Assembly (NCBI RefSeq): GCF_009730915.1
Contig: NC_052478.1
Location: 21,990,387 to 22,054,386, forward strand
Source of the DNA: Dioscorea cayenensis subsp. rotundata
Taxonomy: Eukaryota; Streptophyta; Magnoliopsida; Dioscoreales; Dioscoreaceae
Length of the DNA: 64,000 nucleotides
Direction: 5' to 3'
Under the pieces are notes generated by a model. It ran no database searches, was not told the DNA's origin, and saw only the letters and a list, made by a program, of their open reading frames with translations. A program made the position numbers and the translations under genes. This document shows positions 32,658 to 54,240 of this stretch, in pieces (the stretch's first letter is position 1; the number at the start of each line of letters is the position of its first letter).

Positions 32658-35600
32658 TCAACTATCGCCAGACTGGAGGACCTCTGGGGGCTTAATAGCA
32701 GTTTTGCTCAATATGCCCTTGCCAAAATATTCAGCAATCACAGAGAAACCATCCTTTGAGTTTTTTACTTGCTGAAAAAATAGTTCATGATCTTTTGCAT
32801 TTTGCTCCAAGTTCCGTTTGGTTTCTAGAACAGACCGGATCTCTGGTGCACATTCTGGGCATTCCTTCTCATTGTCACCAAGGCAGCGAAGGTGAAACGA
32901 ATGCATGCACATGAAATGGACAGCAGGTAGATCGAGAGTGAATGTGCAAGCTGTGCACTTGCTAAGCTGAAAGATTCTAGCATTAGTCCTGAGATCCTGA
33001 ATTTCCTTCTTCATTAAAGCAGTCTCGTCCTGCACGGCCAGGTATAGAATGAGATAGATGAAAATAGCAACACTGTTTCATGTCATACAAATATTGCAAA
33101 CACATGGTTTAGCAAAATTAACATTGAAATGTGTCCTGAAAGGGTTATAGCTTCTTGTTTTGCAAATATCCCTTGTGAGCAGATGATGGCAACATCCTGA
33201 CATTTCTAAGACATGAACTGACCATTATCAGACATAACCCCTAGAAGTACCAAAGCTATGTTTTTAAATCTTTGTTCCATGAATAAGAACTTTTGTATTG
33301 CATGTGTTTTTAAGCGGATGAACGAAAGGTTGCTGCTTCCGTTGAGTATAGAACTCGTAACAGCTTACCTTTAAAATTTATGTATCACTTTCGCAAATTT
33401 AAACTGCAATTTTCTGGTGTTTCCCCTAAAAACCTACCTATAATAACTACTGAAGATACATTTCTTTTTCCAAAAACTCATTAGTGTACCTACTCTATTA
33501 CTAGTGTTCTGGTTGACAAGCGGTTGAAGCAGTAAACCAAGAAAACATAGTAATTGGCAATGATCTCATAAAACTAACCTGGTACTTCTCGATAGCCTTG
33601 CGGTCATCTTCAATAAGCTTTGATTCTTCTTCAAGTTTTCGAGCAATGTAATCCTTAACCACAGAGAGTGTCAAGCAGGGATTCTTGGCTAGCGTCTGAA
33701 GAACAATAATCGGAGGCAGTATATCATCCCTTTCAATGTAAGTCAAGACCTCTCTTACTTCTTTGGAGCAATCCTCTCCAAGTTCACCAAAGTACTTCAA
33801 AAGGTCACCCCAAAGAGATGGGTCCCCACCCTGGGTTGAGTCACCCAGCTTTCTGCAGCAAGCTATTAATCCTTCATGGTCATGAACCTGCATATAGCAG
33901 GCAATCACTTCTTTGTAAAGTTTCATCTTCTCATACAAAAACAATAAGCCATCTTTAAATGCATTCATTTCACAAAGAATAACAGCTAAATCAACATCAT
34001 ATAGAGGATACTCCATTTCAGATGTCCATGCACTCTTCAGCAAAGCCAGTCCTTTTTTAAATCTTTCCAGGCGATCCTTATCTTTCTTAACATCCTTAAT
34101 GTCAACAGTTGACTTGCCCTTGCTCTCTGCTGAAGAACCATTAGCCAAATATTTTGTACTTCTCACACTTTTGTCACAATCATCACCACCATTTTCTTGT
34201 GAAATCGATGGAAATGTCAAGGTACTTGAAAGGTATAGCTCCAACAGGGTGTTGTGAATTTCTGCTTGAGCAGGTGAATCTTTAACCTTGGCAGTATACT
34301 TTTCCAGAAAATCCATGAGAGATTGCGGGCTATGAACAAAAATGTTGATAAAATCAACAGGGGATGGCAGCAAACTCATGTGCACACCATTGGAGACCCT
34401 CCTCTTTCTTGATTCCTCGTTCTCAGTGCAAAGCCTCATTAGTATATTAATAGTTTCAACTGGCCTATGTTCTACAAGGATTTTACCATACTCTTTCACA
34501 GTGACACCAGCTTGGTTGGGTTCAAGGCTAGAGATATATTCCAGTGCTTCCTGGTATCTACCCAGGTCTTCAAGTAATATCTTCAAATACCATTCATGCC
34601 GTTCAGCTTTCTTTGCAACATACATTGCATGCTCATGATACCCAGCTGTCCGACAAACTCTTATGGCAGTTTCAACATCAAACTTGTGGTCACCAACACT
34701 ATCATCACCTTTAATGAACTTATTGAGTTTTTCTACATCCTTCAGTTTTGTATAGCAGTTCAAAAGAAGAGTTGTGTGATCTTTAGAAGCCAGCCCTCTT
34801 TCATGCAATTTCTCCAAGTAATTAGTAAGATTGTAGATACGTTGTGCATCCAAAAACTTCTGAATCACATATGATGGTTCAAGATGGCCAATAGTGTGGA
34901 TATATTGAGACATTGCCTCATCATAATCTAGTTTCCCATATAAATGATCACCGTATTTCCGAAGTACTTCAGCGGTGGCTGCAGCATCAGCTTGTTGACT
35001 CTGAACTAGATTGATTGCCACTGTATACAGATTCTTTTTAAACAGCATATCCAATTTACTCTCCATATCCTTTTCGCCGATGCACAAGATCTTTTTGTCA
35101 TTCATTATAAAAATTATATAGCCCCACTCACAAAGCATATGTGAAACTTCTCCAAGCACCATACTGTGAGCAATCAAACGGTTTTTCAAATCATAAACAT
35201 TGAAGGTGTTTTTGTTGCTCCTCTGATCTGCAATAACACATAATAAATACCCACGAAACCAACCCAAGAATTTCTTCTCGCCTTCAAATGCCCAGCAAGG
35301 ACCTCTTCCATCAACTTCATAGAAGTATACAGCTTCAGGACGACCAAGTATTAGATCCTGGTTGAAGTACCAAAATACAGATTCAACACAAATAAGCTGT
35401 AGTAAAAGAAGAAATTGAAACACAAGTAATTCACATACCAGACGATCACTCATAATAACAGCTTTCGTGTCACATCCTATTTGGTCTAGAGTCTGCCTCT
35501 TAGGTGGTTGATCATGCAAATTGAACAGACTTACAGAAGTAGGAGTGACAGCAAACAGTTGAAGTGCTCTCCCTTCAACCCGGAAACCTAGCCCATTGAT

Positions 35601-36991
35601 TGAAGAAAGGCTATTGTCCGAAGAAACCTCCACCTGCAGCGTGAAGCGACTGATACGCTCACGTGCAATATCACCCTTGATGCAATAAATTGAACCATTT
35701 TCCAGACCAATGGCAATCAGTAATATTGGAGGAGCTTCCTCTAGAACTAAAAATGATGCTATCTGTGAACATTGAAGTTCCATAACCCATTAGAGATAAA
35801 TTATCTGCAGTCCCATAACAAAACATGTGTAATTATTGCTCATGAGGCAGATTGATAAAATTTAATAGACTATACCTTTGATTCAGGAAATTGGTTTGTG
35901 AATATACGCAAGATCTGGAGACAAACAGGACTTGTCATGCTAGAACCCTCAGGCTCCATCTTATCAAGGTCAAAAACTTTTAAGCAGATGGAAGATAGCT
36001 GGGGAGATGTCTGCTCTTCCTCTCCAACAGTAACAAGGTAATTGCGTTGCTAATTTAACGAGAAAAGAAAGAGAATGTAACATGAGGTGAAAAGTGAGTT
36101 TAGCTTAGAAAATAAAATTCAATCTTTCTCATTAAATCAATATGAACTGCAATATGCGAATGTTAATCAGATGGCAAGTGCAATGAACTAGCTAAAATGA
36201 GGAGATGAATCATGTCTATCAGAAAAACTTTTATTGGTGCACAGATGCATCCTCATAATGTATTATAGAGGAAAACTCATAGTGATTAATAACTCAAAAG
36301 AAACTTTGAGCTAAGATGCAATCTTTCTTTTCCCATAAGAAGATGTTGTCAACGGCCATGCCTCAGGTCATGGATAAAAGGTTTCCCCTTTTCATTCATG
36401 CAATAACGATGTCAACAATAGGGCTTTGCTTGGCCCTATTTAGCAACTAATGTTGGATGAAAATGATAAAGATGACATAAAATAATGGTAAAGGTTTGCC
36501 CTTTCGTTCATGCCTAATATGATTTTTCTACAATTTTGATCATCCTAGAAACAATCTTTTCCCTTCCGAACAAAAATTATAAAAAGAATGAGAAAAAAAT
36601 AATCTTGGCATGTACAATCCTAATGCAGGAGAAACACGAAGCATACAGTTGAGTTAGATCCAGAAAAACAAAACAAATTCACACAAAGCAGACAACTTGG
36701 ACTCTGAAAAGAAAAGGGAAAAAATAAAAAATAAAAACATCAAGATCCAAGGTAGAGGCGGGGATATACCTTGAGCTGCTGGAGAAAGAGGACGGAGGCA
36801 GCGTGGGCCTGGAAACCATAGAGGAGCTTGAACCCCCGATCGATGAGGCTGACAGTACCGTCACCACATCCGACGGCGATCCTACCCCTTCCGCTAGAGC
36901 AGCACTGGATGGTTCCAGTGATCTCGGCGGAGATGGAACTCTTGCCACCGGATTTCTCCTCGAAGAACTCGAACTTCCTCCATTGATACAT
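32658..36991 (-). CDS. VPS11: vacuolar protein sorting protein VPS11, 956 aa, five exons
   Basis: Core subunit of the HOPS and CORVET tethering complexes, needed for endosome-vacuole and vacuole-vacuole fusion at the tonoplast. Exons in transcript order: 36991-36770, 36049-35876, 35762-35439, 35357-33579 and 33029-32658. Every exon is a whole number of codons (74, 58, 108, 593 and 123 plus stop). The N-terminal about 330 residues suit a beta-propeller (IAVGCGDGTVSLIDRG, SIYCIKGD). An alpha-solenoid/clathrin-repeat region follows (YGKLDYDEAMSQYIHTIG, ADAAATAEVLRKYGDHLYG). The C-terminus carries a C3H2C3 RING-H2 finger: C858, C861, C874, H876, H879, C882, C890 and C893. Arabidopsis VPS11 has about the same length. 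The frame is intact. Its promoter side is odd: a Mutator-like element begins only about 240 bp above the start codon. Confidence 0.96.
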
Positions 36992-37220
36992 CTCCGCGAA
37001 GGAGAGAGAAAGAGAAAAGAGAGCGAGAGGAGCAGAAGAAGGGTTCTTGATTGAAATTGAGAAAAAATTTTGCTTTAAAAATGCTAATAAAATAAAATAT
37101 TATTAACAAATCAAAGTTAATCTAAATTAAAATTCATTTCGAATTTTTTTTTTATGTAAGTAGCAATTAAAATTAAAATGTTATTGTGAAATAAAAGCTT
37201 AATTAATTATATTGTTGGAA

Positions 37221-37229
37221 TTCTATTTA
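37221..37229 (+). repeat. left target-site duplication of the MULE (TTCTATTTA)
   Basis: Nine bases, TTCTATTTA, identical to 46057-46065. Nine to eleven base pairs is the duplication length made by Mutator-like transposition. The flanking bases differ (A before and G after here; C before and T after on the right), so the match is exactly 9 bp. Confidence 0.8.
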
Positions 37230-37375
37230 GGTAAAATTACTGTTCATCACTTGTCATTTTCAAAACTTCCCAAAAACCCCCTCCAACTTTTGCACACTCC
37301 GGACAGCCCTCCGTTATATTTTGCATTCTCTTTAACCCCCCGCCGTTAAGTTGAAGTAGGTCCATAATATGAAAT

Positions 37376-37810
37376 TCCTTTTTTGCCCTTGCAAAAGGAG
37401 GGAAAAATGGCGCACAATCATATCATGTCCGAACTTTATGCGTAATTTTCCAATTTTGTTTGCCTCCTGCTTGCTTTGTCTCAAACAAAGTTTAGAAGGC
37501 TCATATCTTGTTCTTGTTGTTCTTGTTCTTCTTGTTCTTTTTCTTCTTTTGATTTAGTGTACTCAATTTTAGCTTTTGCCACGCTAAAATTTGGCACGCT
37601 TTCGGTGTACTCAATTTTAGCTCTTGCCACGAGAAGGCAACTTGGGCGTCCTAGACGAAAGAGGATCGAGTCGTAAGCGTCCGAGGACGGTGAGTTGCGT
37701 TGTAGCCATTGCCACGCTTCCGGTCCACAAGTTGCGTTGTAGCCATTGCCACGCTTCCGGTCACAATCGCAGATCGTGCAATGAATCTGTTGCCGAGTAG
37801 GCATTGTGTA
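37376..37810 (+). pseudogene. internally deleted copy of the MULE transposase gene (leader fused to 3' end)
   Basis: The first part (37376-37560) resembles the transposase leader at about 39190-39370: a run like CCTTTTTTGCCCTTGC, then GGAGGGAAAAATGGCGC, an ATCATGTC box and a pyrimidine (TTCTTGTTCTTC) tract. It then switches to a near copy of the transposase 3' end at 41560-41700: CGAGAAGGCA, CTAGACGAAAGAGGATCGAG, and the zinc-knuckle codons CGGTCACAATCG and GATCGTGCAATGA. The segment GTTGCGTTGTAGCCATTGCC is present twice in a row (about 37692 and 37732). It cannot encode a working protein. Confidence 0.7.
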
Positions 37811-38059
37811 TATACTTGTTAGTATTGTTTAAATATTGAACTCTATATTTAAATACATCTGCTTAAATATTGGCTTCTCTATTTAAATTTGTTTTTTTTA
37901 TCGTTTAACCTATATTTTTATTGGCTTAAAATATACAACGCGATGGTGCCAGCGGTTCCCCAAGCGTAATTAATGCACGCTCGGTTACCCAAGCGTTTCC
38001 ACTCCCGTCGCACATAAAAATCGGAAGCCGAAGCGGCAGCAGGCTGTTGGATTTCGCAG

Positions 38060-38067
38060 TATAAATG
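38060..38067 (+). promoter_or_regulatory. possible TATA box inside the MULE
   Basis: TATAAATG within GCAGTATAAATGGGAAGG, about 140 bases before the fold-back and 1.3 kb before the transposase start. It could drive either, but the link is only positional. Confidence 0.35.
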
Positions 38068-38197
38068 GGAAGGAAGAACCATTTCGTTGAACATACTCTA
38101 CTTGCGCAACCACTCCTTTTCCTCTTCCTCTTCTTCTTGTGTGATGGTCATCCTGTCGAGTCAAACATTTGGCGTTCACGATATTCGCTGAATTCAA

Positions 38198-38467
38198 ACC
38201 ACATTTTTTAGATCATAAACTTTTTACAGGATGTGTCATGATTGTCTTCATCTTGTCATCCGTAAACAACCTGTAAGTGAAAACTTTCTTTTTCTTGCCC
38301 AAGGCGAAATGCTCGCCTTCTTGCTCTACGGGTAAGCAATGACGGAAGTGCGTTTCGCCTTGAGTCAAGAAAATAAGGTTTCACTTACAAGTTGATTGTG
38401 GATGATTACCAGAAGAAGGTTCATCACATATCCTTTAAAAAGAACTTGATCTATAAAAAAATGTGGT
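38198..38467. repeat. long imperfect inverted repeat (270-nt fold-back) inside the MULE
   Basis: Arm 1 is 38198-38312 and arm 2 is 38351-38467. Read on the opposite strand, arm 2 starts ACCACATTTTTTTATAGATC, like arm 1 (ACCACATTTTTTAGATCATA). Later matches include AGGAT(G/A)TGT, TTGTAAGTGAAA against CTGTAAGTGAAA, and CAAGGCGAAA. The arms are about 75% complementary by eye. The short middle also pairs (TTGCT with AGCAA), leaving a loop of about 9 nt. Similarity seems to continue outward for another 20-40 bases (ATTCGCT against ACTCGCT). An RNA from here would form a long mismatched hairpin like a young MIRNA or siRNA precursor. Transcription is not shown. Confidence 0.8.
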
Positions 38468-39029
38468 CTGACTGGAGCGAGTGTTGTGGACACCCTATTC
38501 AAAGGTATACTTGGACGATTCCGAGGTCCGTGTTGGTTACGTCGTCCGTTAAACGGAGAGTTTGAAGCTTAAACGGAGAATTTTTGTATTGTCTTACATT
38601 CTATTTTTATCAGAGATTTGTATTTTAAGTAAAAGTCATTGTAATTACGCTAATATTTAATAATAAAATGAATGTTGTATTGTATTGTATTAAATATATT
38701 TTTATCAGAGATTTGTATTTTTAAGTACATTTCATTGTAATTACGTTGATACTTTATAAGAAAATGTTAAACTGAGAAAATGAAATTTAAACAGAGCAAA
38801 ATAAATGAAATTTAAAGGGAATGAATGTTATCAGAGATTTGTATATTAAGTAAGTTAATATTGAATAAGAAAATGAATGTTGTATTGTATTGTCTTAAGT
38901 GAACATTCTACTTTTATCAGAGATTTGTATTTTAGGTACATTACATTGTAATTAAGTTGATATAATACAATAAGAAAATGTTAAACATAGAAAAATCATG
39001 TTAAAGGGAGAAACTGATACTTAAACGGT

Positions 39030-39112
39030 ATTTTAAACAGAAACTTTGTTCTTTTAAATAGAGACTTTATTATTTTAAATAGAGACTTTGTTATTTTAAA
39101 TAGAGAGTTTCA
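39030..39112 (+). repeat. 21-bp iterons TTTTAAA(C/T)AGA(A/G)ACTTTxTT, four units
   Basis: Four successive 21-bp units upstream of the transposase gene, each opening TTTTAAATAGAGACTTT or a close variant. The same word appears singly or in small arrays through the non-coding parts of the element. Confidence 0.8.
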
Positions 39113-39391
39113 ATACATGCAGGACATGTTGAGGTGAGAACTTTCATTCGAGCGATGACAATATGTCTTCCTCGCGACAGTGACATATATTTCCCTTTTT
39201 TCCCTTGGGATGGAGGAAAAAATACCGCCAAATCACATCACGTCTAGTCTAATCTCTATGCATACAACTGTGCAGTTTTTTGTTTGTCTATCTGACTGTT
39301 GTTTGTTGTTTACATCTTCTTCTTCTTCTTCGTCTTCTTTTTGTTCTTTATTTCATTTGGTTTGTACAATTTGGTTTTCGGCCGATATATT

Positions 39392-41694
39392 ATGGAGAGT
39401 TTTTGTGGTATTGCTAGATTCAACGGGGAGGGAAAAGTGTTAATGTTCACGGCTCAAACTTCTTGGGAGTTGGTTTTAGCTGAGATATGTGAGCGATGGG
39501 GTCTCGAAGTTTCCCTTGTCAGGGTGAAGTTTATCACACCAGATGGATATAAAACGGTTTGTCCAATAGAAAATGATGTTGACTTCCGGGACGGATGTGT
39601 CACGCTGCACTCCATCTTCAAATGCTGCTGTAGTTGATCTTGTTGTCGAAAATGCATAATGTGCCATCGTCGAATCTCTAATGAAAACGAGTTTTTACTC
39701 GTTGTAAGTTCCTTCTCTTTTATTTAATCCAGCTTGTATGGGTTCATTATTGTTTAAGTATGTCGACTCACTGGTTAACATCCGGGTACTATTCGCTTTT
39801 ACGTTAATTGGTCATCTGCTTTAAGTATTTACGTTAACGCTTTAAATGTTTGCATTATCACTTAAACATCATATTCTCCGCTTAACATATTGATCTTTTC
39901 ATTCGATCGAAGTGTTGGCAGGGAATTCGGATTCTGCGAGTGCTCCCGCTCATCCCCATGGTGACCTCGACGCGTGGGATGTCTTCCTTCCTCGCCGGAT
40001 CATTCGAAGTCGTCGTCATTAGATATTGGACAACGTTTTGACTGCGTTGAACATTTCAGGGATGTACTTCGAAATCATGCAATCAAACGGAATTTTGACT
40101 TCAAATTCATAAAGAACGCAAAACATCGGGTGACTGTGGAATGCGCTGCCGATGGTTGTCGTTGGCGCCTTTATGCATCAAAAGAGTATAATAAAAATAC
40201 TTTCAGAATCAAGACAATCAACCCGTCACACACTTGCGGTGGTGGTATAGGTTCGGCGTCACATCCGAAAGCGTCCAAAAAATGGGTTAGCGCACGAGTG
40301 ATTCAGAAGCTCAAGGACCGGCCCTTGTACAAGGCCATCGACATTCAGAAGGACATGTTGCGGGAATATGGTGTCCACATACCATACAAGCAGGCTTGGT
40401 TGGGGAATGAGCATGCCCGGGTGGTCCTCGATGGCAGTGACATCTCCAGATACGACTGTTTGCTTTGGTATGTGGATAAGGTGGTTGAGACAAATCCCGG
40501 CAGCGTTGCGATCGTGGAAAGATACGGTGATCGTTTTAAACGTGCATTCTTTTCTTTCAGCGCGTGTATTATGGGATTCAAGAGGGCTTGCAGGTCCACG
40601 GGCCTTGTGAACGCAATTGCGAGAGTCTTCCCTTCTTCGCCACATACATACTGTCTTCGACATTTGGAGGCCAATTTTATGAAAGCCAACGTCAGACTTG
40701 GGAAGGCATTGAGGGAGGAGTGCTGGTGTATATGCTTCCGCATTGCGTGGGCATCCACGGCTAAATATTTTGATGATACCGTGAATGAACTTCAGGCCAC
40801 ATCACCCGAAGCTCATCACTGGTTGATTAATAAATCGGATATGACACATTGGTCGAATTATCTGTTCAGAGGTGATCGTTGGGGTGAGATGTATTCAAAT
40901 CTCGCGGAGTCGTTCAATGCTTGGATCAAAGAAGCTCGTCATTTACCGGTGACGAAAATGGTCGACTCCATAAGGTCTGCGAATGTTGATTTACACTTAA
41001 CATTTAGTGTTACCCTTTAAACATTTTCAATATTTGTTTAATTCGACTTGTCTGACTTTAAATATTAATCTTTTCGTTTAACTATTTACAATAATGTTTA
41101 AACATGTTTACGAATTATTTAACCATCATTGTCTTTGTTTAACCTTATTTGCCAGGTTCAAGTTGATGCGCATGTTATGTAACCGGCGTGAGCAAGCGCA
41201 AATGGGAGACCTACTTATACCCAGACATACATTCGAAGGTAGAGATCATTGTTGAGGATAGCCGAAATCTTCGTGTTGGTCGTTATGTCAATGATCGTTA
41301 CGAAGTGATCAACCAATGTAGCAACTTTGTAGATCTTGCCATCAGAACTTGTTCATGTCGAAGGTGGCAAGTTTATGGTATCCCTTGCAAACACGCTTGC
41401 GCTACAATAATGCAGACAGACACCAACGTTCATAGATTTATTAGCGGCTACTTCACCGTCGACAATTACAAACTGGCGTATAAGGAAGTTATATTCCCCA
41501 TACCCGACGATGACAGGCCTTCAGACGGAAATCGTGAGCTTCGTTTGCGACCGCCTGTGACGAGAAGGCAGCCTGGGTGTCCTAGACGAAAGAGGATCGA
41601 GTCGCAAGCGTTAGATATCCGCGAGTTACATTGCAGCCGCTGCCATGGATCCGGTCACAATCGTAGATCTTGTAATGAAACTGTCGCCGACTAG
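39392..41694 (+). pseudogene. MULE transposase (MURA-like), broken
   Basis: Parts seen in order: an N-terminal PB1-like segment (39392-39620, starts MESFCGIARFNGEGKV); an intron with donor about 39704 (GTT/GTAAGT) and acceptor about 39921; the MuDR DNA-binding domain (about 40027-40245) with a CAADGCRWRLY zinc-ribbon-like motif; the MULE transposase core (about 40400-40985), ending AESFNAWIKEARHLP; an intron at about 40977-41155; then a SWIM zinc finger (CSCRRWQVYGIPCKHACA) and a CCHC knuckle (CSRCHGSGHNRRSC). The frame is broken near 39620, between the about 39921 acceptor and the DNA-binding domain, and near 41200. The core lacks the middle block holding the first two catalytic Asp residues: CR runs straight into STGLVNAIARVFP. 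The remaining catalytic Glu (LAESFN) is present. The protein cannot be active. Confidence 0.85.
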
Positions 41695-41785
41695 ACATTG
41701 TAAATAAGCTGACTTCTAAAGAGAAACAATCTGAATTGACTGGAAATTTTTCATACTTAAACTCTTATTCTTTATAGTGTTATCG

Positions 41786-41900
41786 GTTATTTAAACAGAG
41801 ACAGTGTTATTTTAAACAGAGAAACTGTAATGTTAAATGTTTCAAACTGATATTTAAACGATAGATGGTAAAGTTAAACATTTAAACTGAAATGTAAACA
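41786..41900 (+). repeat. TTTAAACAGAGA iterons 3' of the transposase gene
   Basis: ATTTAAACAGAGACAGTGTT and TTTTAAACAGAGAAACTG follow each other at about a 21-bp step, then looser TTAAAC words. Same strand and same core as the units near 39030 and 45236. Confidence 0.7.
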
Positions 41901-42058
41901 ATGACATTGTAAATTAAACAATAAATTGAATTTGAATGGAATTTAGTCTAACTTTACAATTAAAAAATGAATTGAATTTGAATGGAATTTGTCCTGGTTT
42001 ACATTCGAAAACAAAATTGACATTAACATATACAAGTCCTGTCCTGCGAAATCAAAAT

Positions 42059-45000
42059 TTAACCCGCTTCGGATGACCCCCCTTTCTCATGGACGCCGGC
42101 TGCCCTCCGCTCCTTAAGTATGCCGGTAACATACTTTAATCTCAGGTAAGGGACGTCTGTCTGCGGTAGCCGTAGCTTCTCACCCTAAAGTAATTGCTCG
42201 ATAAACCGCATGACATAGACGGTGCAATCGACGCTTCCTTGTTTTTGCCGTGGGGTTTCCATGTCGTAAACGAGTGGGTACTTTGCGGTCGCCGACTCGC
42301 CGAACTGCATATCGACAGCCGTATCGAATAGATTCCGCTGTCGAGATATGCAAGTTGAGATTAAGATACCGATTAAATAACAAACACTATCAATCTGACA
42401 TAATTAAAGAACTTACCATGTCCAACGCGTCTGTTTCGTATCCCACGCATGAAGAATAATGCATGTATTCTTGTTTGTCATTGTCAAGGACGACGACATG
42501 GAAGTGGGCATTCATTATTATCGGGAGGATGACAATTTAAACTTCATGCAAGCTGCGCACAACATCTCCGATCATAACCATAGTTGTTTCATGTGCGTCA
42601 TCCTGCTTTGACATAAACAGTGCCAGCGGTCTTGTGATGGAGGCGCGCTTTTTGTAGGGATATGGCACTTTGCTCATCGACTTTTGTATTATGCATACAA
42701 AAGCGTCCATCACATCATCTGTCACCATCTCCTTACTCTCAAGCAGCGTGTATAATTTGTCCCGTGTGGTGCTGACAGCGTCATTCTTCCACACGACAGT
42801 GCTGAGATTAAACGATAACAGATATAATTAGACCATATTCTAAATATTTAAATGATGTTATCAATGCTCAAATGATATTATAAATAAATAAACGTTAAGT
42901 ATATAAATTAAATGATAACATATAAACATTTAAACACTATCACAAAAAAGTTAAACACTATCATAAAAACTTTAAACACTATCACGAAAACTTTAAACTT
43001 ACCTGTCCATACGGCAGTTAAGGAAGATCCTTATCAACTCCTGCTCGTATTTGTTAAGACGCGATTGGCCAACCTATTTTTTCTTCTTCAGAACGAAGAC
43101 TTGCCGAGCCGTCTTGTCACAATTTTGATTGGCCTTGATCATCTCCCTCGTTGCTCGGTCGGGGTCTTCATGGGGCACTGTCGTTGAGCCTTCACGGTGT
43201 TGAGCACCAGCAGCATCTTCCTTCGATGCGGGGACGGCGACAGCATCAACCGCAGACACATCCTTACATGGTTGTTGTTGTTGTTGGATTGTGTCTGGCT
43301 TCGATGCGGTACTGTCCACCACGGCCACGGAAACAAATTCAACGATCTTCTCAGCCGTGGCCACGGCAACAACATCAACGGGAGACACACCCTTAGCTTG
43401 TTCTTGTTCTTCATGGATTGTGTCCATCTTTGATGCCGCAATCTCGGCAGCCGGTTCCACCGGGTCGGGGATTTCGTTAACAAGGGAGTAAACGATCTTC
43501 TCAACCGCGGCAACGGCCACATCATCTACGATGTCCTCCACCGTCATGGCCATATCATCTCGACGGCAGACTCGATATAACATCGATCGCCCGATGGTGT
43601 TGCTATTGTTTCATCGTCACCCGGCGGTGGAGACAGAGGCAGTATTGTTCTCCTCTTTTTCGCAAGTCTCTTCGAATGTGGCCGTCTTGGAATGGCCACC
43701 CCGATGATGTCATCGTCGTCAAATTCCGACGGCTCGTCCGTCCCGGGTGGTTCATTTCTTTGGAGGGACGACGCAGTCGGTTGTGAACGTCCTTCCAGTG
43801 CCTCAACACGAGCGACAAGCGAGGAAACTCGGTCATCAATATCTGGCACGCCTGCATAAGAGTTGCAGTGACATCTTCGCCTAAGATAGTCGGTGGGGCT
43901 GCCACGGTCGGAGGGGCTGCCATGGTCGGGGAGGCTGCCACAATTGGGGGGACTATCGTTGTCGTGGTAGGGGTGGGGGAGTGCTTATCCGACGTCGAGG
44001 AATGCGTGCGCGTGGTGGGCTGAAAGTAGGAGAACGGCGTTGAGCGCGCACGATAGAGGCTACCCTCTCATCCTGCCTTCGAGCAAGTGGTTCCGGAGCA
44101 AAAGCATCCATCCGTCGGTTGGCCCCAACAAATATTTCTTCTTCAGCTTTCGCCAGAACCAGCTCAGGAAACTAACATATGTAAATTTTAAAGTTAAACG
44201 GAGAACAAAATATTTACACCTTTATGAATAAATTTTAAACTATAAATAATAAAGTTAAACGCTAAATAAAATGGTTAAACATTAAAGACTTCTGTTAAAC
44301 ATTGTCCATGATTTATTACCTCTTTTTCTTCGAGCGATAACAAATTGGTTTCTACCGTCGCTTGCTTCATGTAACTACTTTCACCGTAGCACAGCATCCT
44401 TGGGATCTTGCCAAAACGGACTTTCTTTCCCGTTCCGGTCAGCTCGTAAAACCATATGTTAAGCGGGACCGAGCACCCCTTAATATATCCTGTGTTGGTC
44501 TTCTTCCCGGCGCATCTATCTTGTACTCGAGCGGCTGCGTGTGGAATGTCCTCCATCAGCCACTTGTGCGTCGTCTGCGCCCATGCGTATCGCCCCATGG
44601 CGGGTAGATCATCGACATAATCAACGATCCAGTTCGGAACCGAGCATGATTTATTTGGGAAGAGGACTGTACCCATGAGGTGCACCATTAGGAGTTTGAC
44701 AAAATTATCTTCTTCCCCCCTCTATCAAACAAGTTGAACAAGAGTGCTCTAGATGGAGTCTCTGTGTCTCTCGTAGGTTTTTGATAAATACCTCCCTTCG
44801 AACGCTGAGCGGGTTTTCTTCTTCTGAAACACGACTTCGTCGCCATCGCAACGCAGACCAAGAACGAGGGCCACATCCTGAGGCCTGAAACTCAGCAGGC
44901 TTTTCCCGATCCTGAATTTATTGGTGCGACCATCGTACCTTTGCAGTAGAGGATCAAGAAGGGCCCTCTCTTGGTATATAGTTTCCAGCTCAGTGAATGC

Positions 45001-45120
45001 TGCAAACGGTGTCCTTCGGATGATCTCCCAGTGTCGAGGGGTCATGTTATCTTTCAATTCAGCTAAGGTCTCCACTACCGGTGTCAAATAACATCGCCCA
45101 TTAACTAGGTTGACCGCCAT
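42059..45120 (-). pseudogene. ULP1-like cysteine protease (peptidase C48) gene carried by the MULE, broken
   Basis: ULP1 enzymes cut SUMO from proteins; MULE-borne relatives are of unknown role. The relic starts MAVNLVNGRCYL at 45120. A conserved N-terminal mobile-gene region follows (TPRHWEIIRRTPFAAF, LLSFRPQDVALVLGLRCDGD, MVHLMGTVLFPNK). Next comes a low-complexity acidic linker (43.0-44.2 kb), then the protease domain at the C-terminus: an NAHFHVVVLDND stretch (His and Asp candidates, about 42470-42510) and QKQGSVDCTVYVMRF with the catalytic Cys codon at 42224-42226. Donors are visible after LLSLEEKE (about 44320) and after ETDALDM (about 42417). Broken by stops at 44749-44751, 44725-44727, 44722-44724, 42537-42539 and 42185-42187 and by likely frame changes in the linker. 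The natural stop is taken as 42059-42061. Confidence 0.8.
42925..43000. repeat. TTTAAACACTATCA(C/T)(A/G)AAAA tandem repeat
   Basis: Three units of 20-21 bp (TTTAAACACTATCACAAAAA and variants) followed by a fourth TTTAAAC, within an intron of the ULP1-like relic. It shares the TTTAAAC core of the other iterons in the element. Confidence 0.85.
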
Positions 45121-45213
45121 AGTCACAAGCCTGCGACAATAACAACACATTCAACATGCACTATTGACAAATGTTTAAGAGAAAATATAAGATTTTAAAT
45201 GGTAACCTTCAGT

Positions 45214-45300
45214 TATTAAATAGAGATATCAATTGTTAAACAGAGACCTAGTTTATTAAACAGAGACAATAATACTTAAACAGAGACAAGAAAATTTAAA
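45214..45300 (+). repeat. TTAAACAGAGAC iterons upstream of the ULP1-like gene
   Basis: TTAAACAGAGAC occurs at 45236-45247, 45255-45266 and 45275-45286, a step of 19-20 bp, preceded by a TTAAATAGAGA variant. The word is in the same strand orientation as near the transposase gene. Confidence 0.85.
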
Positions 45301-46056
45301 CTGTAACATCTCATTTCTTAAACGTAAACCTCATTTGCAAAACTGCAACCATATCAAATGAAAGGGGAAATGTATATTATAAATATTACACAAATCATAA
45401 CAATCGAAATAACTATTTCGATAGTGTATACAGACGAAAGCGCAAAACAACACAAAACCCTAGCCGAGAAATTGCCCTACAGACTAACAAAACCCCAGCC
45501 GAGAAATCCCCCTGCAGACTTCAATATCTTCCAACAAAAATATGAGCACAAAACGAAACCGAAAAAAATCTTTCTTTTGTAATGGAATAGTTACCATAAA
45601 ACCATACTCAATACCTTAGATTGCAAACAGATTAAATGCCAACTACTTGCGTGGGACTTCTCCTTCGAGATACCGGTGGAAAGGAAAAAAAGTCTGCAAT
45701 TACGGAGGTTGCGCGATGAGAGACAACTCGGAGGCAGCTTGGAAATGGAAAAAGCGAAGACGCGAGTTGAGAAAAAAATTCGATAGCTGACTCGATGAAA
45801 TTCCTCTCTTGGGGTTACCATACGGAAACCCCCCCCCACCCACTTCCTCTTATACCGCCGAAATGGCTGCAGTCATGACTCCCCATGCAAGGGCATTTCC
45901 GTCCATAAAATTTGAAATTCACTCTGTTGACATCCTTTTTTTTTTTTGGGTTGAAAAACATAGAATTAAAAAGGCAGGGGTATTTGGGGAGTACAAAACT
46001 AACGGGGTGTTTTTGGTAATATGGCAAATTTAGGGGGTGTTTTTGACAATTTCCAC

Positions 46057-46065
46057 TTCTATTTA
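46057..46065 (+). repeat. right target-site duplication of the MULE (TTCTATTTA)
   Basis: Exact 9-bp copy of 37221-37229. Confidence 0.8.
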
Positions 46066-46570
46066 TGACTCTAGCATTTATTAATACCTTATTAAGAAAA
46101 TATTAGTAAACAATGTTATTTTTAACAACTAGTATTCTAGTATATAATAAAATATTTGATTAAGCTTTCAAGTAAGTGAATTTTATGAAAACTTTTGTGA
46201 TTTTTTTTGTTTTACTTTTAACAAAATCTACAGGTTACGTTGTGATTTGTGTAAGTATAGAATTAATATCTCACACATCTTTGCTCTTATTTTGTATAAC
46301 TGTATAAGTAAATTTTTTTTAGTATAATTTATATACCTGATAGAAAGGACCTGATATCATAAACCAAAATATTATTGGTAAAATTTATAATTATTGCTTA
46401 TAAATTATTATTTAATTATTCAAAATATTTTCAAATATATCTATTTTTTCTCAATACTCAATTATTTTTAAATTTGCAAAAATATATATACATATATATT
46501 TTTTTTTCTTAAAAATCAAATGTTTCCAATAAATTTACCTATGCCAGGGAGGGAGGGTTGCTTTTGGATC
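46066..46570. other. AT-rich host DNA between the MULE and the LINE
   Basis: About 500 bases of AT-rich DNA with no gene or repeat that I recognise. It appears to be pre-insertion host sequence. Confidence 0.5.
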
Positions 46571-46585
46571 AACACAAGCAAATTA
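46571..46585 (+). repeat. left target-site duplication of the LINE (15 bp)
   Basis: AACACAAGCAAATTA, identical to 49779-49793. Confidence 0.8.
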
Positions 46586-49500
46586 TGCTAAACTTTCCGC
46601 TCTTCAACGCCAGAGCAACATTAAATGGGCTCAGCGTGCTCGTTTAAGCTGGGTCTCTGACGGCGACAAAAACACTAGCTTCTTTCATGCTATTTATCGA
46701 ACCCGTTCTCATTTCAATCACATTTCTCAAATCGAGGATGTTAATGGTATTGTTTATAGGGATCCCAACGGCGTTGAACAAGCTTTTACAAATTATTATA
46801 AAAATCTCTGGAGCAGCCCTTCGGATAATATCTGCATCAATTTGGACGAGCTTCCACCTGATATTCCCAGAATCTCCGATTCTGATAGCGATTTCCTTAT
46901 CCGCAATGTTACTCTCGAGGAAGTCCATCAATCTTTGCTTGATCTTCCTTGCGTAAGTCCCCCGGACCCGACGGTTTTAATGTGGAGTTTTTTTCAAAGC
47001 TTATTGGTCTATCGTGGGTATCCATCTTTTTTTAAGGCTATTCAATACTTTTTCAAAACTTCTTTCATCCCTTCATCTTGGGGTAAAACTTTCGTCGTTC
47101 TCATTCATAAAAAAGATAGTCCTAAAACGGTTTCAGATTTTCGTCCCATTTCTCTTTGCAATGTGTGTTTCAAAGTTCTTTCTAAGTTGCTTGCTAATAG
47201 ACTCAAAAGAGTTCTTCCCAAAGCATCATTGGTCGAGAGCAAGTTGGTTTTGTGTCTTCTAGGTGCTCTTCCGATAACATCATTGCCGTGCAAGAGGTTG
47301 TTCATTCGATTGAGTCTGATACTAATAGCCCCCCTAGGATGATTCTTAAAATTGATATCGAAAAGGCATACGATACCATCAATTGGAGTGCAATTCTTAC
47401 CATTCTTAGGAAAATGAATTTTCCCCAACTCTGGGTCTCTTGGATTGAATCTTGTCTTAAGGCTTGTTCATTTTCTCTTCTAGTTAATGGTAACCCATCT
47501 CCATGGTTCTGTTCTTCTAGAGGAGTGCGGCAAGGTGATCCCATTTCTTCTTACTTGTTCATTATTGTGTCTCAAACTCTCACTACCTTGCTCAACTTCG
47601 GGTCTTGACGCAATCTCATCCCACGGCTTTAATAACTCTCTCGAGTCAAAAATTTCAATCACTTAATGTATGCGGATGATTTAATTCTTATCACCCATGC
47701 TACCGTGAAAAGTCTGCTCGAAACGTTTGCACTTGCTTAAAAATTTACGGCAATTACTCTGGCGAGTTTCCTAACTATACTAAATCCAAAATTTACTTCC
47801 CTTCTTGGATGAATAAGCATATTATCAGTCGGATTTGTAACGTTTTGCATCTCAGGCAAGACTCTTTCCCTTTCAAGTATCTAGGGGTTTTTATTTCTCC
47901 TAAAAGGTTAGCTCCGATTACTTTTCAGCCACTGATTGATAAAGTCTCTTGCTTAGCTTTTAAATGGTCCAAGTATCACCTTTCCCCTGCTGCCAAAGAG
48001 ATCATGATCAATTCTGTCATGTTAGCAATTCTTGTTTACACTCTTATAGTTTATCCCATCCCTGATTCAATCCTGACTGACATTTCCAAAGTTGTGAGAA
48101 AGTTCTTCTGGTCCAGGAATGGTAATGGAAAGGGCATCCACAATGTGAGTTGGAGTATTATATCCGAAGGTAAGTCTGATGGGGGCTTAGGTATCAAAAA
48201 TATTCACCTTGCCAAGCATTCTCTTATGTCTAAAAACATTTTCAAATACTTAAACAAGCATGATTGTCTTTGGGTTGATATTGTGCTTCATAAATATGGT
48301 GAAATGAATTTCTGGCTTGATCCTGTCCCGGCCAAATGCTCTTGGTTCTTCAGGGGTTTATGCAAATCTGCATTTGTTATCAAAAATCATTGCAAAATCA
48401 ATAATGTTAATCCTCTAAACACCTCTTTTCTCTGGGACCCTTGGCTGTTTGAGATCCCACTTGCACTTAAGCCTACTTATCTTAACATGAATGTTGATTT
48501 GAATGGGATTTCTCTTTCTGATTTTACTTCTTCTGATCACTGGTCTGTTTATGAATTTAGTCATATCTTTGGTAATACTGCTGATAATTTGGAGTTGCCT
48601 TCAGTTACTATCAATCAAAACTCTGAGAATCATTGGATTTGGTTCTCTAATGCTTCTAATATCAAAATATCTTCAGCTGTTTATCACACGTTGAATAAGC
48701 ATCCTGTTTGTTACAATGATTGGATTGGTTGGAATATTATTTGGAGCATTCCTGTTGCTCCCAAAATAAAACACTTCATTTGGCTTTGTTTGAGAGGCAG
48801 GCTATCCACTTCTGTTTTCCTGCACAGCATTCACCTTGGTCCTGACAATCCCTGTGTTTTCTGTGGTATCCATCATGAAACTATTGATCACATTCTTTAT
48901 CAATGCGATAGAATTAGAGAAATTTGGGAGCATGTAAACAGAATCCTTAAATCCTCCTTTAATTTCTCTGGTGGCTTTTCTTCTGGTAATTGGGTTATTG
49001 AGCATAAGCATTCCAAGTTCAATTTAGCAGTCATTGCTGCTTGTGCTTTGTTTATTTGGGTGTGCCGTTGTGATTATATTTTCAGGGACACTCGTCCCAT
49101 CTTTTCCAGCATTGTCTCCAAAGCTGTTGCTCATGTTGAAGAATACCATTGGTGTAATTCTAAAATGTTGGGTAGAAAACTCATGCTGTCCAACTTCTCT
49201 TCCGAGGATGACTACTTCTTGTTCTCTCATGCAGCATCTGATCAATCCACCGGGGTAAGTTCAACAGGATTCTTTTTTTCAAACGCTAATTATAAAATTT
49301 CTCTTGCTGGCAGCTCCTCCAGACAATTTTCTAACCGGCATTTGGACGCAATTATTGCTGTGGAAGTCGCTCTTCAAGCCGCGCTGGATCTCCACATCCC
49401 GGTGAAGCATGTTCTTTGCGATCACGCTGCCGTCATACAACTCCTGAATTGCTCGGATCACATCTCTTCGTGGCGATTCGAGGCTCAAGTTAGCAACCTT

Positions 49501-49778
49501 AAGTTCTTACTCGACGCATGCGGTCATCCCCAAATACACATTATACCCTCGCTGGACGGATATCCGGCAGCCAACCTCGCAACTTACGGACTAATACATC
49601 ATCAGCTCAATCTTTTTCTATTCGGCAAAGACCTTCCGTTTTGGATTATGAAATCATTTCGTAGTTTCGGTTTTAGCTTTTAATTATGTTTCTAGTTTTG
49701 TGTTTAGTTCTCAGATTAGTATCTTTGTCTTCGTTTACTTTTAATACATAGCTTCCCCAGTTGGAGAGGTTCTTCAAA
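46586..49778 (+). mobile_element. 5'-truncated L1-type LINE retrotransposon
   Basis: A 3.2-kb non-LTR retrotransposon copy flanked by a 15-bp direct repeat, as made by target-primed reverse transcription. The endonuclease part of ORF2 is missing. The copy begins in the linker before the reverse transcriptase (RARLSWVSDGDKNTSFFHA). A 3' tail of about 95 bases follows the stop at 49683. I see no long poly(A): the end is GTTCTTCAAA. Lone 5'-truncated copies of this kind are common in plant genomes. Confidence 0.9.
46587..49683 (+). pseudogene. LINE ORF2 relic: reverse transcriptase, zinc-binding domain and RNase H
   Basis: Reading along: the RT palm begins near 47095 (KKDSPKTVSDFRPISLCNV). A frame change near 47223 moves to IIGREQVGFVSSRCSSDNII and then KIDIEKAYDTINW and RGVRQGDPISSYLF. 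A second break lies near 47605. The YADD active site is at 47669-47680 (HLMYADDLILITHA). An open frame from 47809 to 49683 covers the RT thumb, the zf-RVT zinc-binding domain (IKHFIWLCLRGRLSTS, CVFCGIHHETIDHILYQC) and a C-terminal RNase H-like domain. It is closest to plant L1 LINEs. The N-terminus and endonuclease are absent and the frame is broken at least twice, so it is inactive. Confidence 0.88.
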
Positions 49779-53095: not shown

Positions 53096-54240
53096 GTAAC
53101 ACATAAACATCCTCTACTATAGATATGGTGTAGGCACTAGGCAGGCTGCAGCTCCAAGGCGAGGACGTGTCAAGCATGTCTGACTCCACTTCACTCTATT
53201 GCTACTTCACTGTTATATTGTCACATGGCAAATCCCAACCATATGATTTGACTCATCAGATGAATCAATCCATTTCATTAGTTCTTCCAATATATATTCA
53301 TCAGTTTGGTTTGCAGGTTCACGAGGAGCAACAGTCCTCCTTATTCCAATAGTGTGTGTGTTTGTGTGCAATGTGCATACTTATTCCTTACTTGGATCCA
53401 TCGTATCTTTCTTTCTCTCTGACACAAACCAACTACATTTACAAGTAATCCATTAATCTTTACTGGCAGTAATAGTAGTAGTAATAATAATAATAATAAT
53501 ATTTTTTACTATTCCGAGCGTGTCCTGAAACAGAATGCCAGAATTGAAAACATGTTAATAAATAATTACAGTAAAAAAAAAAAGGCTAAAGACGTGGGGC
53601 TCGAAACGCAAATGGGAATGCAAAAGGCATAGGGGTGGGTGAGGGTGAGGCATGGTTCGTCCCCGTCCCTCCGATTTAGAGGGCGGTGTGGATAGATGAG
53701 TGCGTTGGTGGGGCCATAATGCTTTACGAGTGGACAAGGACAGGGACAAACAAATCTTTGGGTGAAGGCCAAGCAAGGGATCATCCACGCACGAACACAA
53801 CAAGCCAATTTTCATTCTTGGGAACAAGGAAGAAGAGATCACTTTTAAATTTCTTTACCCTCTCCAATCATCCACTTCTTCATGCTCCCCTCCCACATCT
53901 TATCATTCATTTCAATTTCAATTTCAATTAAGAATCTCACTTCCCAGGTACCACCTTTCTATTTATTTTATTTATTCTCATTACTAAATTAAATAGAAAT
54001 AAAAAAAGGAAAAAAAGGAATTTTTATTAAATGATTTATTTAATTTATTTATATATTATTAGCTGGTGTTGTGCCTATTTATTTCTTCGGTTACACCGCC
54101 TTCTCTCGTCTACCTTGATGCCTGAGCCCGTTCTCCCCCCAAAGTAATCAATCTGACTCTCTCTCTTTCTCTCTCTTTCCCACCCACGAGTTCGTGACCC
54201 AAAAACAAAGACAACGACAATATAAAAAAAAGCCCTATTT
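49794..54240. other. gene-free spacer
   Basis: About 4.4 kb without a recognisable gene on either strand. Holds an A-rich tract near 50608-50645, (CAG)n at 51344-51365, a CTAGCA/GTAGCA run at about 52192-52228, and (TTA)n at 53061-53094. I checked by eye for common conserved plant miRNA sequences and for tRNA B-box patterns and saw none. A CTTCCCAG/GTACCACC donor-like site near 53947 might belong to an upstream leader exon of the Rab gene; this is unproven. Confidence 0.4.
53061..53094. repeat. (TTA)n microsatellite
   Basis: Eleven TTA/ATT units read directly in the spacer upstream of the Rab gene. Confidence 0.95.

What the first reader, a model, noticed from the sequence alone, without database searches (positions are those of the whole stretch)
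38160..38530. A 270-nt imperfect fold-back inside the MULE, shaped like a young MIRNA or siRNA precursor
The arms 38198-38312 and 38351-38467 pair over almost their whole length with spaced mismatches, and the pairing continues into a short terminal loop (TTGCT/AGCAA). Similarity seems to fade outward rather than stop. Long, partly mismatched hairpins arising from inverted duplication are the proposed origin of new plant MIRNA genes. A candidate TATA box (38060) lies about 140 bp upstream. No named feature of MULE genes explains this structure.
Basis: partly seen in the sequence, partly recalled or inferred. Interest (0 to 1): 0.72.

Follow-up and report, generated by a model that had tools for sequence, protein, structure and literature searches.

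The report
Old decaying palindrome inside plant transposon
A real 324-base fold-back sits inside a broken plant jumping gene, but it looks like an old mirror-image insert that is slowly decaying, and nothing found here shows that it makes a microRNA.

Summary
The fold-back is real and longer than described: 38171-38494, arms pairing inward to a small loop near 38330. It is the strongest local inverted repeat found in the window (149 bits, next 53.6) and folds far better than shuffles on both strands (z -14.2, -13.2). It does not fade outward: pairing stays dense to the outer end and the flanks are unrelated. The arms differ at 29 of 143 aligned sites (K2P 0.24), so it is not young if they began identical. 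Its stability matches a perfect palindrome decayed neutrally by the same amount (235 of 400 simulations as stable); no strand is favoured beyond chance. No Rfam family reaches cut-off, no target in the window exceeds chance, and open frames across it match no Pfam family. It lies in a defective, probably ULP/PMD-type MULE (about 37230-46056, 9-bp direct repeats), between a truncated transposase fragment and the main transposase gene. Best reading: an old MITE-like or inverted-duplication passenger that could feed siRNAs if transcribed. A microRNA gene is neither shown nor excluded; small RNAs and sister copies could not be examined.

The parts
38171..38494 (.). whole imperfect palindrome (fold-back)
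   Evidence: self-BLASTN inverted match, 72.8% over 338 columns, 149 bits, E 7.6e-37; folding; 123 pairs in the + strand fold, 10 of them G-U
38171..38329 (+). 5' arm
   Evidence: local alignment to reverse complement of 38332-38494
38332..38494 (+). 3' arm
38060..38066 (+). TATA-like word upstream; weak evidence
   Evidence: 45 (+) and 49 (-) such words in the window
38662..38667 (+). AATAAA word downstream; possible poly(A) signal, not tested
   Evidence: another at 38800
37629..37807 (+). truncated, diverged copy of the transposase 3' end, upstream of the fold-back
   Evidence: 80% identity of 37629-37730 to 41560-41660 and 87% of 37756-37807 to 41650-41701
37375..37555 (+). diverged second copy of the transposase leader region 39191-39363
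   Evidence: gapped local alignment, its 3' part low-complexity; significance not tested
39965..41020 (+). transposase (MURA-like) main exon; most of the MULE core domain is not matched
   Evidence: DBD_Tnp_Mut E 3.1e-20; PF10551 matched only at 73-98 of 99, below cut-off
41167..41694 (+). transposase C-terminal exon, SWIM zinc finger
   Evidence: PF04434 E 4.4e-10
42188..42403 (-). remnant resembling the Ulp1 protease catalytic end
   Evidence: PF02902 E 0.031, below curated cut-off; weak
44275..45150 (-). plant mobile domain-like ORFs (two pieces)
   Evidence: PF10536 E 0.0025 and 0.01, both below curated cut-off; weak
37221..37229 (+). 9-bp direct repeat TTCTATTTA, left (proposed target-site duplication)
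   Evidence: the word also occurs at 53957 and 56227 on + and twice on -
46057..46065 (+). 9-bp direct repeat TTCTATTTA, right

Best explanation
It is an old palindromic DNA segment, MITE-like in size and in its sharp complementary ends, or else a sharp-ended inverted duplication. It is carried as a passenger in the 5' part of a degenerate MULE, probably of the ULP/PMD-bearing type. It arose as near-identical mirror arms (inferred), which have since drifted apart about as neutral decay predicts (simulated). If the region is transcribed from either strand, the RNA would fold into a long, imperfect double strand and be cut by Dicer-like enzymes into a mixed set of siRNAs acting mainly on the element and its copies; this last step is inferred, not shown.
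For: Sharp limits with complementary GG..CC ends and unrelated flanks; dense pairing along the whole stem; both strands fold strongly; observed stability is typical of 400 neutral-decay simulations (235 of 400 as stable or more for +, 364 of 400 for -); arm-swap test shows no strand preference (67 of 400 swaps as stable on +; strand difference reached in 38 of 200); G-U 10 against A-C 5 on + (by hand a one-sided binomial gives about 0.15); no Rfam family at cut-off; none of ten open frames of at least 35 codons overlapping the fold-back matches Pfam (five, five); the host element is visibly degenerate. MITEs, Mutator-type among them, as sources of fold-backs and of some MIRNA genes are described in PMC10004981 (12 of 17 passages shown).
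Against: No target-site duplication beyond chance at the fold-back ends: one search lists five overlapping candidates, all from one TCAAA match (best a 9-mer with 2 mismatches), at uneven offsets from the two ends; by hand about 0.5 such 9-mers are expected by chance. No second copy in the window, and copy number in the genome could not be tested. So MITE and plain inverted duplication cannot be told apart. The tests of selection have low power with one sequence.
Confidence: 0.6

Rival explanations
1. A MIRNA or proto-MIRNA gene with its own promoter: transcription from the TATA-like word at 38060, processing of the stem by DCL1, polyadenylation near 38662.
For: Long stem; TATA-like word about 110 bp upstream of the stem and AATAAA words at 38662 and 38800; 167 of 261 duplex placements of 20-22 nt with both ends paired (+ strand) meet the duplex limits applied (limits recalled; the paper was not held); + strand somewhat more stable than - (-150.1 against -139.0).
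Against: Stem longer than the 300 nt usually allowed (recalled); no single favoured register; no excess stability over neutral decay; no significant strand preference; no Rfam match at cut-off; no target in the window beyond chance; TATA-like words are common.
Confidence: 0.12
2. A Mu killer-like self-silencing hairpin: the fold-back makes siRNAs that silence the transposase of its own family in trans.
For: It lies in a MULE beside a rearranged transposase fragment; [quoted passage not shown]
Against: The arms match nothing in the window but each other at E up to 0.01, and none of the small-RNA-like sites lies in the element; so it has no visible transposase target here.
Confidence: 0.05
3. 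An inverted duplication of a captured host-gene fragment (as in Pack-MULEs), i.e. the classical route to a MIRNA that targets its founder gene.
For: An open frame of 62 codons crosses the 3' arm, 38377-38562; MULEs with captured gene fragments are reported (PMC2528002 passages).
Against: No Pfam match for ten frames overlapping the fold-back and only chance-level hits of that frame among solved structures (E 0.58 and 3.2); differences between the arms do not gather at third positions of that frame (8, 13, 4 at positions 1, 2, 3; uneven, but by hand chi-square p about 0.09). Non-coding captured sequence is not excluded, and no plant gene set could be searched.
Confidence: 0.13
4. A functional DNA palindrome of the MULE, for example a cruciform or transposase-binding subterminal structure.
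For: It lies about 940 bp inside the proposed element end, and no clear terminal inverted repeats were found.
Against: No other local inverted repeat at E up to 1e-3 in the proposed element, so no counterpart near its other end.
Confidence: 0.05

Closest known systems
[quoted passage not shown]
   Same: Size (324 nt), near-complete palindrome, sharp complementary ends
   Different: No target-site duplication beyond chance, copy number unknown, terminal sequence not assigned to a superfamily
KAONASHI-type / ULP1-bearing MULEs (PMC2528002, passages), for the host element
   Same: mudrA-like transposase, Ulp1-like remnant in reverse orientation downstream, no clear TIRs, 9-bp direct repeats
   Different: Ulp1 and PMD matches are weak and below curated cut-offs; transposase core largely unmatched; carries the fold-back and a second truncated transposase fragment. 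Published KI-MULE sequences were not compared
Maize Mu killer (PMC3440606, start of abstract in search listing)
   Same: Inverted repeat within Mutator-family DNA
   Different: Mu killer carries mudrA and TIR sequence, proposed hairpin about 4 kb; these arms match no part of the transposase gene
Plant MIRNA genes from inverted duplication (PMC10004981, passages)
   Same: Long imperfect stem
   Different: No small RNA, target or founder gene shown

Membership tests
Plant MIRNA | precise 20-22-nt miRNA/miRNA* reads | not testable with these tools
   no small-RNA data
Plant MIRNA | duplex with at most 5 mismatched and 3 asymmetric bases (limits recalled) | tested here: met
   167 of 261 placements on +, 100 of 230 on -; met so widely that it does not discriminate
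Plant MIRNA | fold-back of at most 300 nt (recalled) | tested here: inconclusive
   whole palindrome is 324 nt, though an inner part would fit
Plant MIRNA | match to a described family (not required of a new MIRNA) | tested here: not met
   0 Rfam matches at gathering score in the window
MITE | short element with terminal inverted repeats of at least 10 bp | tested here: met
   324 nt; 14 of the outermost 19 aligned positions identical (counted by eye on the alignment)
MITE | target-site duplication | tested here: not met
   nothing beyond chance; hence called MITE-like only
MITE | multiple copies in the genome | not tested
   genome search unanswered; no second copy in the window
MULE (host element) | MuDR-type transposase | tested here: met
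   DBD_Tnp_Mut E 3.1e-20, SWIM E 4.4e-10; core domain only partly matched
MULE (host element) | 9-bp target-site duplication | tested here: met
   TTCTATTTA at 37221 and 46057; the word is not unique in the window
MULE (host element) | terminal inverted repeats (not required of non-TIR MULEs) | tested here: inconclusive
   best local match between 37100-37450 and 44900-46600 lies outside the element; by eye the termini share weak similarity; [quoted passage not shown]
Mu killer-like silencer | arms homologous to the transposase gene | tested here: not met

The most novel reading that the evidence does not exclude
A MULE that has carried its own hairpin small-RNA gene (promoter, stem and poly(A) signal) for a long time, kept through several rounds of transposition, acting on a host gene or on rival elements.
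Probability: 0.06. Interest if true: 0.6.

Novelty: new member of a known kind. Interest (0 to 1): 0.2.

Why it matters
Fold-backs in transposons are one proposed raw material for plant small-RNA genes. In this one the arms have already diverged widely, so conservation in sister copies would quickly separate a kept function from neutral decay. As the evidence stands it is ordinary transposon debris.

Tried and rejected
Tried without result: Rfam with a lax threshold on 37000-39500 (6 matches, all below their cut-offs) and with curated thresholds on the whole window (0). Target search by a plant-type pairing score over the whole window except 38100-38560, with 12 shuffles of the + strand fold-back as control and none for the - strand: 6 hits for +, which are two places (48969-48972, best score 3.0, and 35181-35182, score 4.0, on the strand of the VPS11-like gene), and 1 for - (10799, score 4.0); the shuffles gave 0 to 17 hits with a best score of 2.0. 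Pfam on seven frames (the five that overlap the fold-back without a match; the other two, outside it, weak: zf-C2H2_10 E 0.05 and PB1 E 0.043) and on the remaining five frames of at least 35 codons that overlap it (none). Solved structures with one frame (two chance-level hits). Viral contigs for relatives of the transposase (24 pattern matches, none confirmed). Six short words of the stem as RNA in the paper library (0 papers). Papers were also searched; in the titles and abstract starts listed there I saw no fold-back like this one in a MULE, but only open-licence papers are held and I did not read them through. PMC4858842 (passages) speaks of hairpins formed by MULE terminal repeats as siRNA sources, which is a different structure.

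Rejected: 'young' (arm divergence), 'fades outward' (flank test and pairing count), strand-specific selection (not significant), coding origin of the arms (not supported). A first count of pairs near the loop was cut by a filter in my script and was redone. The window-wide energy scan in steps of 100 nt missed the register of the fold-back, so its ranking was not used.

Not possible: looking for sister copies; the genome search did not complete in eight tries.

Full report
OBSERVATION. The stretch 38160-38530 folds as RNA at -159.7 kcal/mol against a shuffled mean of -84.9 (z -14.2, 0 of 100 shuffles as good); the opposite strand gives -145.9, z -13.2 (0 of 100). A self-comparison shows one inverted match, 38171-38494 against itself, 72.8% over 338 columns. 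It is the highest-scoring local inverted repeat of the window: 149 bits against 53.6 for the next, among 20 rows at E up to 1e-3 within 1.5 kb. In register the 324 nt fold at -150.1 (+) and -139.0 (-), lower than any of 637 windows of the same length on either strand (lowest -132.5 and -117.6); that scan ran in steps of 100 nt and missed the register of this fold-back, so it may have missed others too.

BOUNDARIES. The arms align from 38171/38494 to 38329/38332. In the fold of 38160-38530 the stem runs from the pair 38174-38491 to 38325-38335, with 123 pairs of which 10 are G-U; paired bases per 20-nt step from the outer end inward are 16, 19, 15, 12, 17, 17, 18 and 9, the last step reaching the loop. 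The 60-nt flanks are unrelated to each other (local score 10; 284 of 300 random pairs reach it).

AGE AND SELECTION. Over 143 aligned sites the arms share 114; K2P is 0.24. At plant neutral rates recalled from the literature this is of the order of ten million years, if the arms began identical. Of the 15 transition differences, 10 give G-U and 5 give A-C on the + strand, not significant by hand. Swapping the 35 differing blocks between the arms at random gives + strand folds as stable as the observed one in 67 of 400 cases, and a strand difference as large in 38 of 200. Decaying a perfect palindrome by 29 substitutions and six indels, as between the arms, gives a fold as stable or more in 235 of 400 cases against the + strand value and 364 of 400 against the - strand value. 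So nothing beyond neutral decay is needed, though one sequence gives little power.

SMALL-RNA TESTS. No Rfam family reaches its cut-off in the window; the best weak match on 37000-39500 is MIR812 at 36.5 bits against 80. Duplex limits for plant miRNAs (recalled) are met by 167 of 261 placements on + and 100 of 230 on -, so no register stands out. Target-like sites elsewhere in the window number 6 for + (two places) and 1 for -, while 12 shuffles of the + strand give 0 to 17. One of the + places, 35181-35182 with score 4.0, lies in the VPS11-like gene and on its coding strand; at chance level I do not build on it. A TATA-like word is at 38060 and AATAAA words at 38662 and 38800, but the TATA-like word is common in the window.

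SETTING. The fold-back lies inside a Mutator-like element that I delimit at about 37230-46056 by the 9-bp direct repeat TTCTATTTA; the word also occurs twice more on + and twice on -, so the limits are probable, not proven. The transposase has its DNA-binding (E 3.1e-20) and SWIM (E 4.4e-10) domains, but only the last quarter of the MULE core domain is matched, below cut-off, so this copy is probably not autonomous. On the other strand lie weak plant-mobile-domain matches and a weak Ulp1 protease match, a layout like that of ULP-bearing MULEs; in the non-TIR KI-MULEs the ULP domain also runs opposite to mudrA, and 9-nt duplications are reported for a grapevine family without TIRs (PMC2528002, passages). 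Upstream of the fold-back is a diverged fragment of the transposase 3' end (37629-37807) and a diverged copy of the leader region (37375-37555), so the 5' part of the element looks like a rearranged, truncated second copy. The host is taken to be a flowering plant from these families (inference); the species was not determined.

INTERPRETATION. The most economical reading is an old MITE-like palindrome or inverted duplication carried as a passenger and decaying. It is not filed as a MITE because no target-site duplication was found and copy number is unknown. It would act as an siRNA source only if transcribed. A MIRNA gene remains possible but has no positive evidence here beyond the stem and common promoter-like words. 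A Mu killer-like role against the transposase is disfavoured because the arms match no part of it.

LIMITS. The genome search that would have shown sister copies did not complete, and no small-RNA data were available.

Noticed in passing
37557-37762: In and beside the truncated transposase fragment there is an exact 33-bp direct duplication (37693 and 37730) and an 18-bp word repeated at 37557 and 37605, pointing to later local rearrangement.
   Followed up: partly
38584-39110: Diverged duplications of about 90-180 bp in an AT-rich spacer (38584-38994), followed at 39029-39110 by a 21-bp repeat that recurs at 41787 (75%) and more weakly at 45170-45230 (65-68%).
   Followed up: no
37228-41694: CpG observed/expected is 0.87 to 1.35 in the five segments measured, high for a plant transposon if it had long been methylated (expectation recalled).
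   Followed up: no
46533-49683: Remnant of a LINE-type reverse transcriptase about 470 bp beyond the proposed MULE end (RVT_1 E 0.00039 below cut-off, zf-RVT E 1.6e-15).
   Followed up: no
33501-35789: VPS11-like gene on the - strand. By eye its first exon may lie near 37000, which would put the MULE just upstream of this gene; not tested.
   Followed up: no
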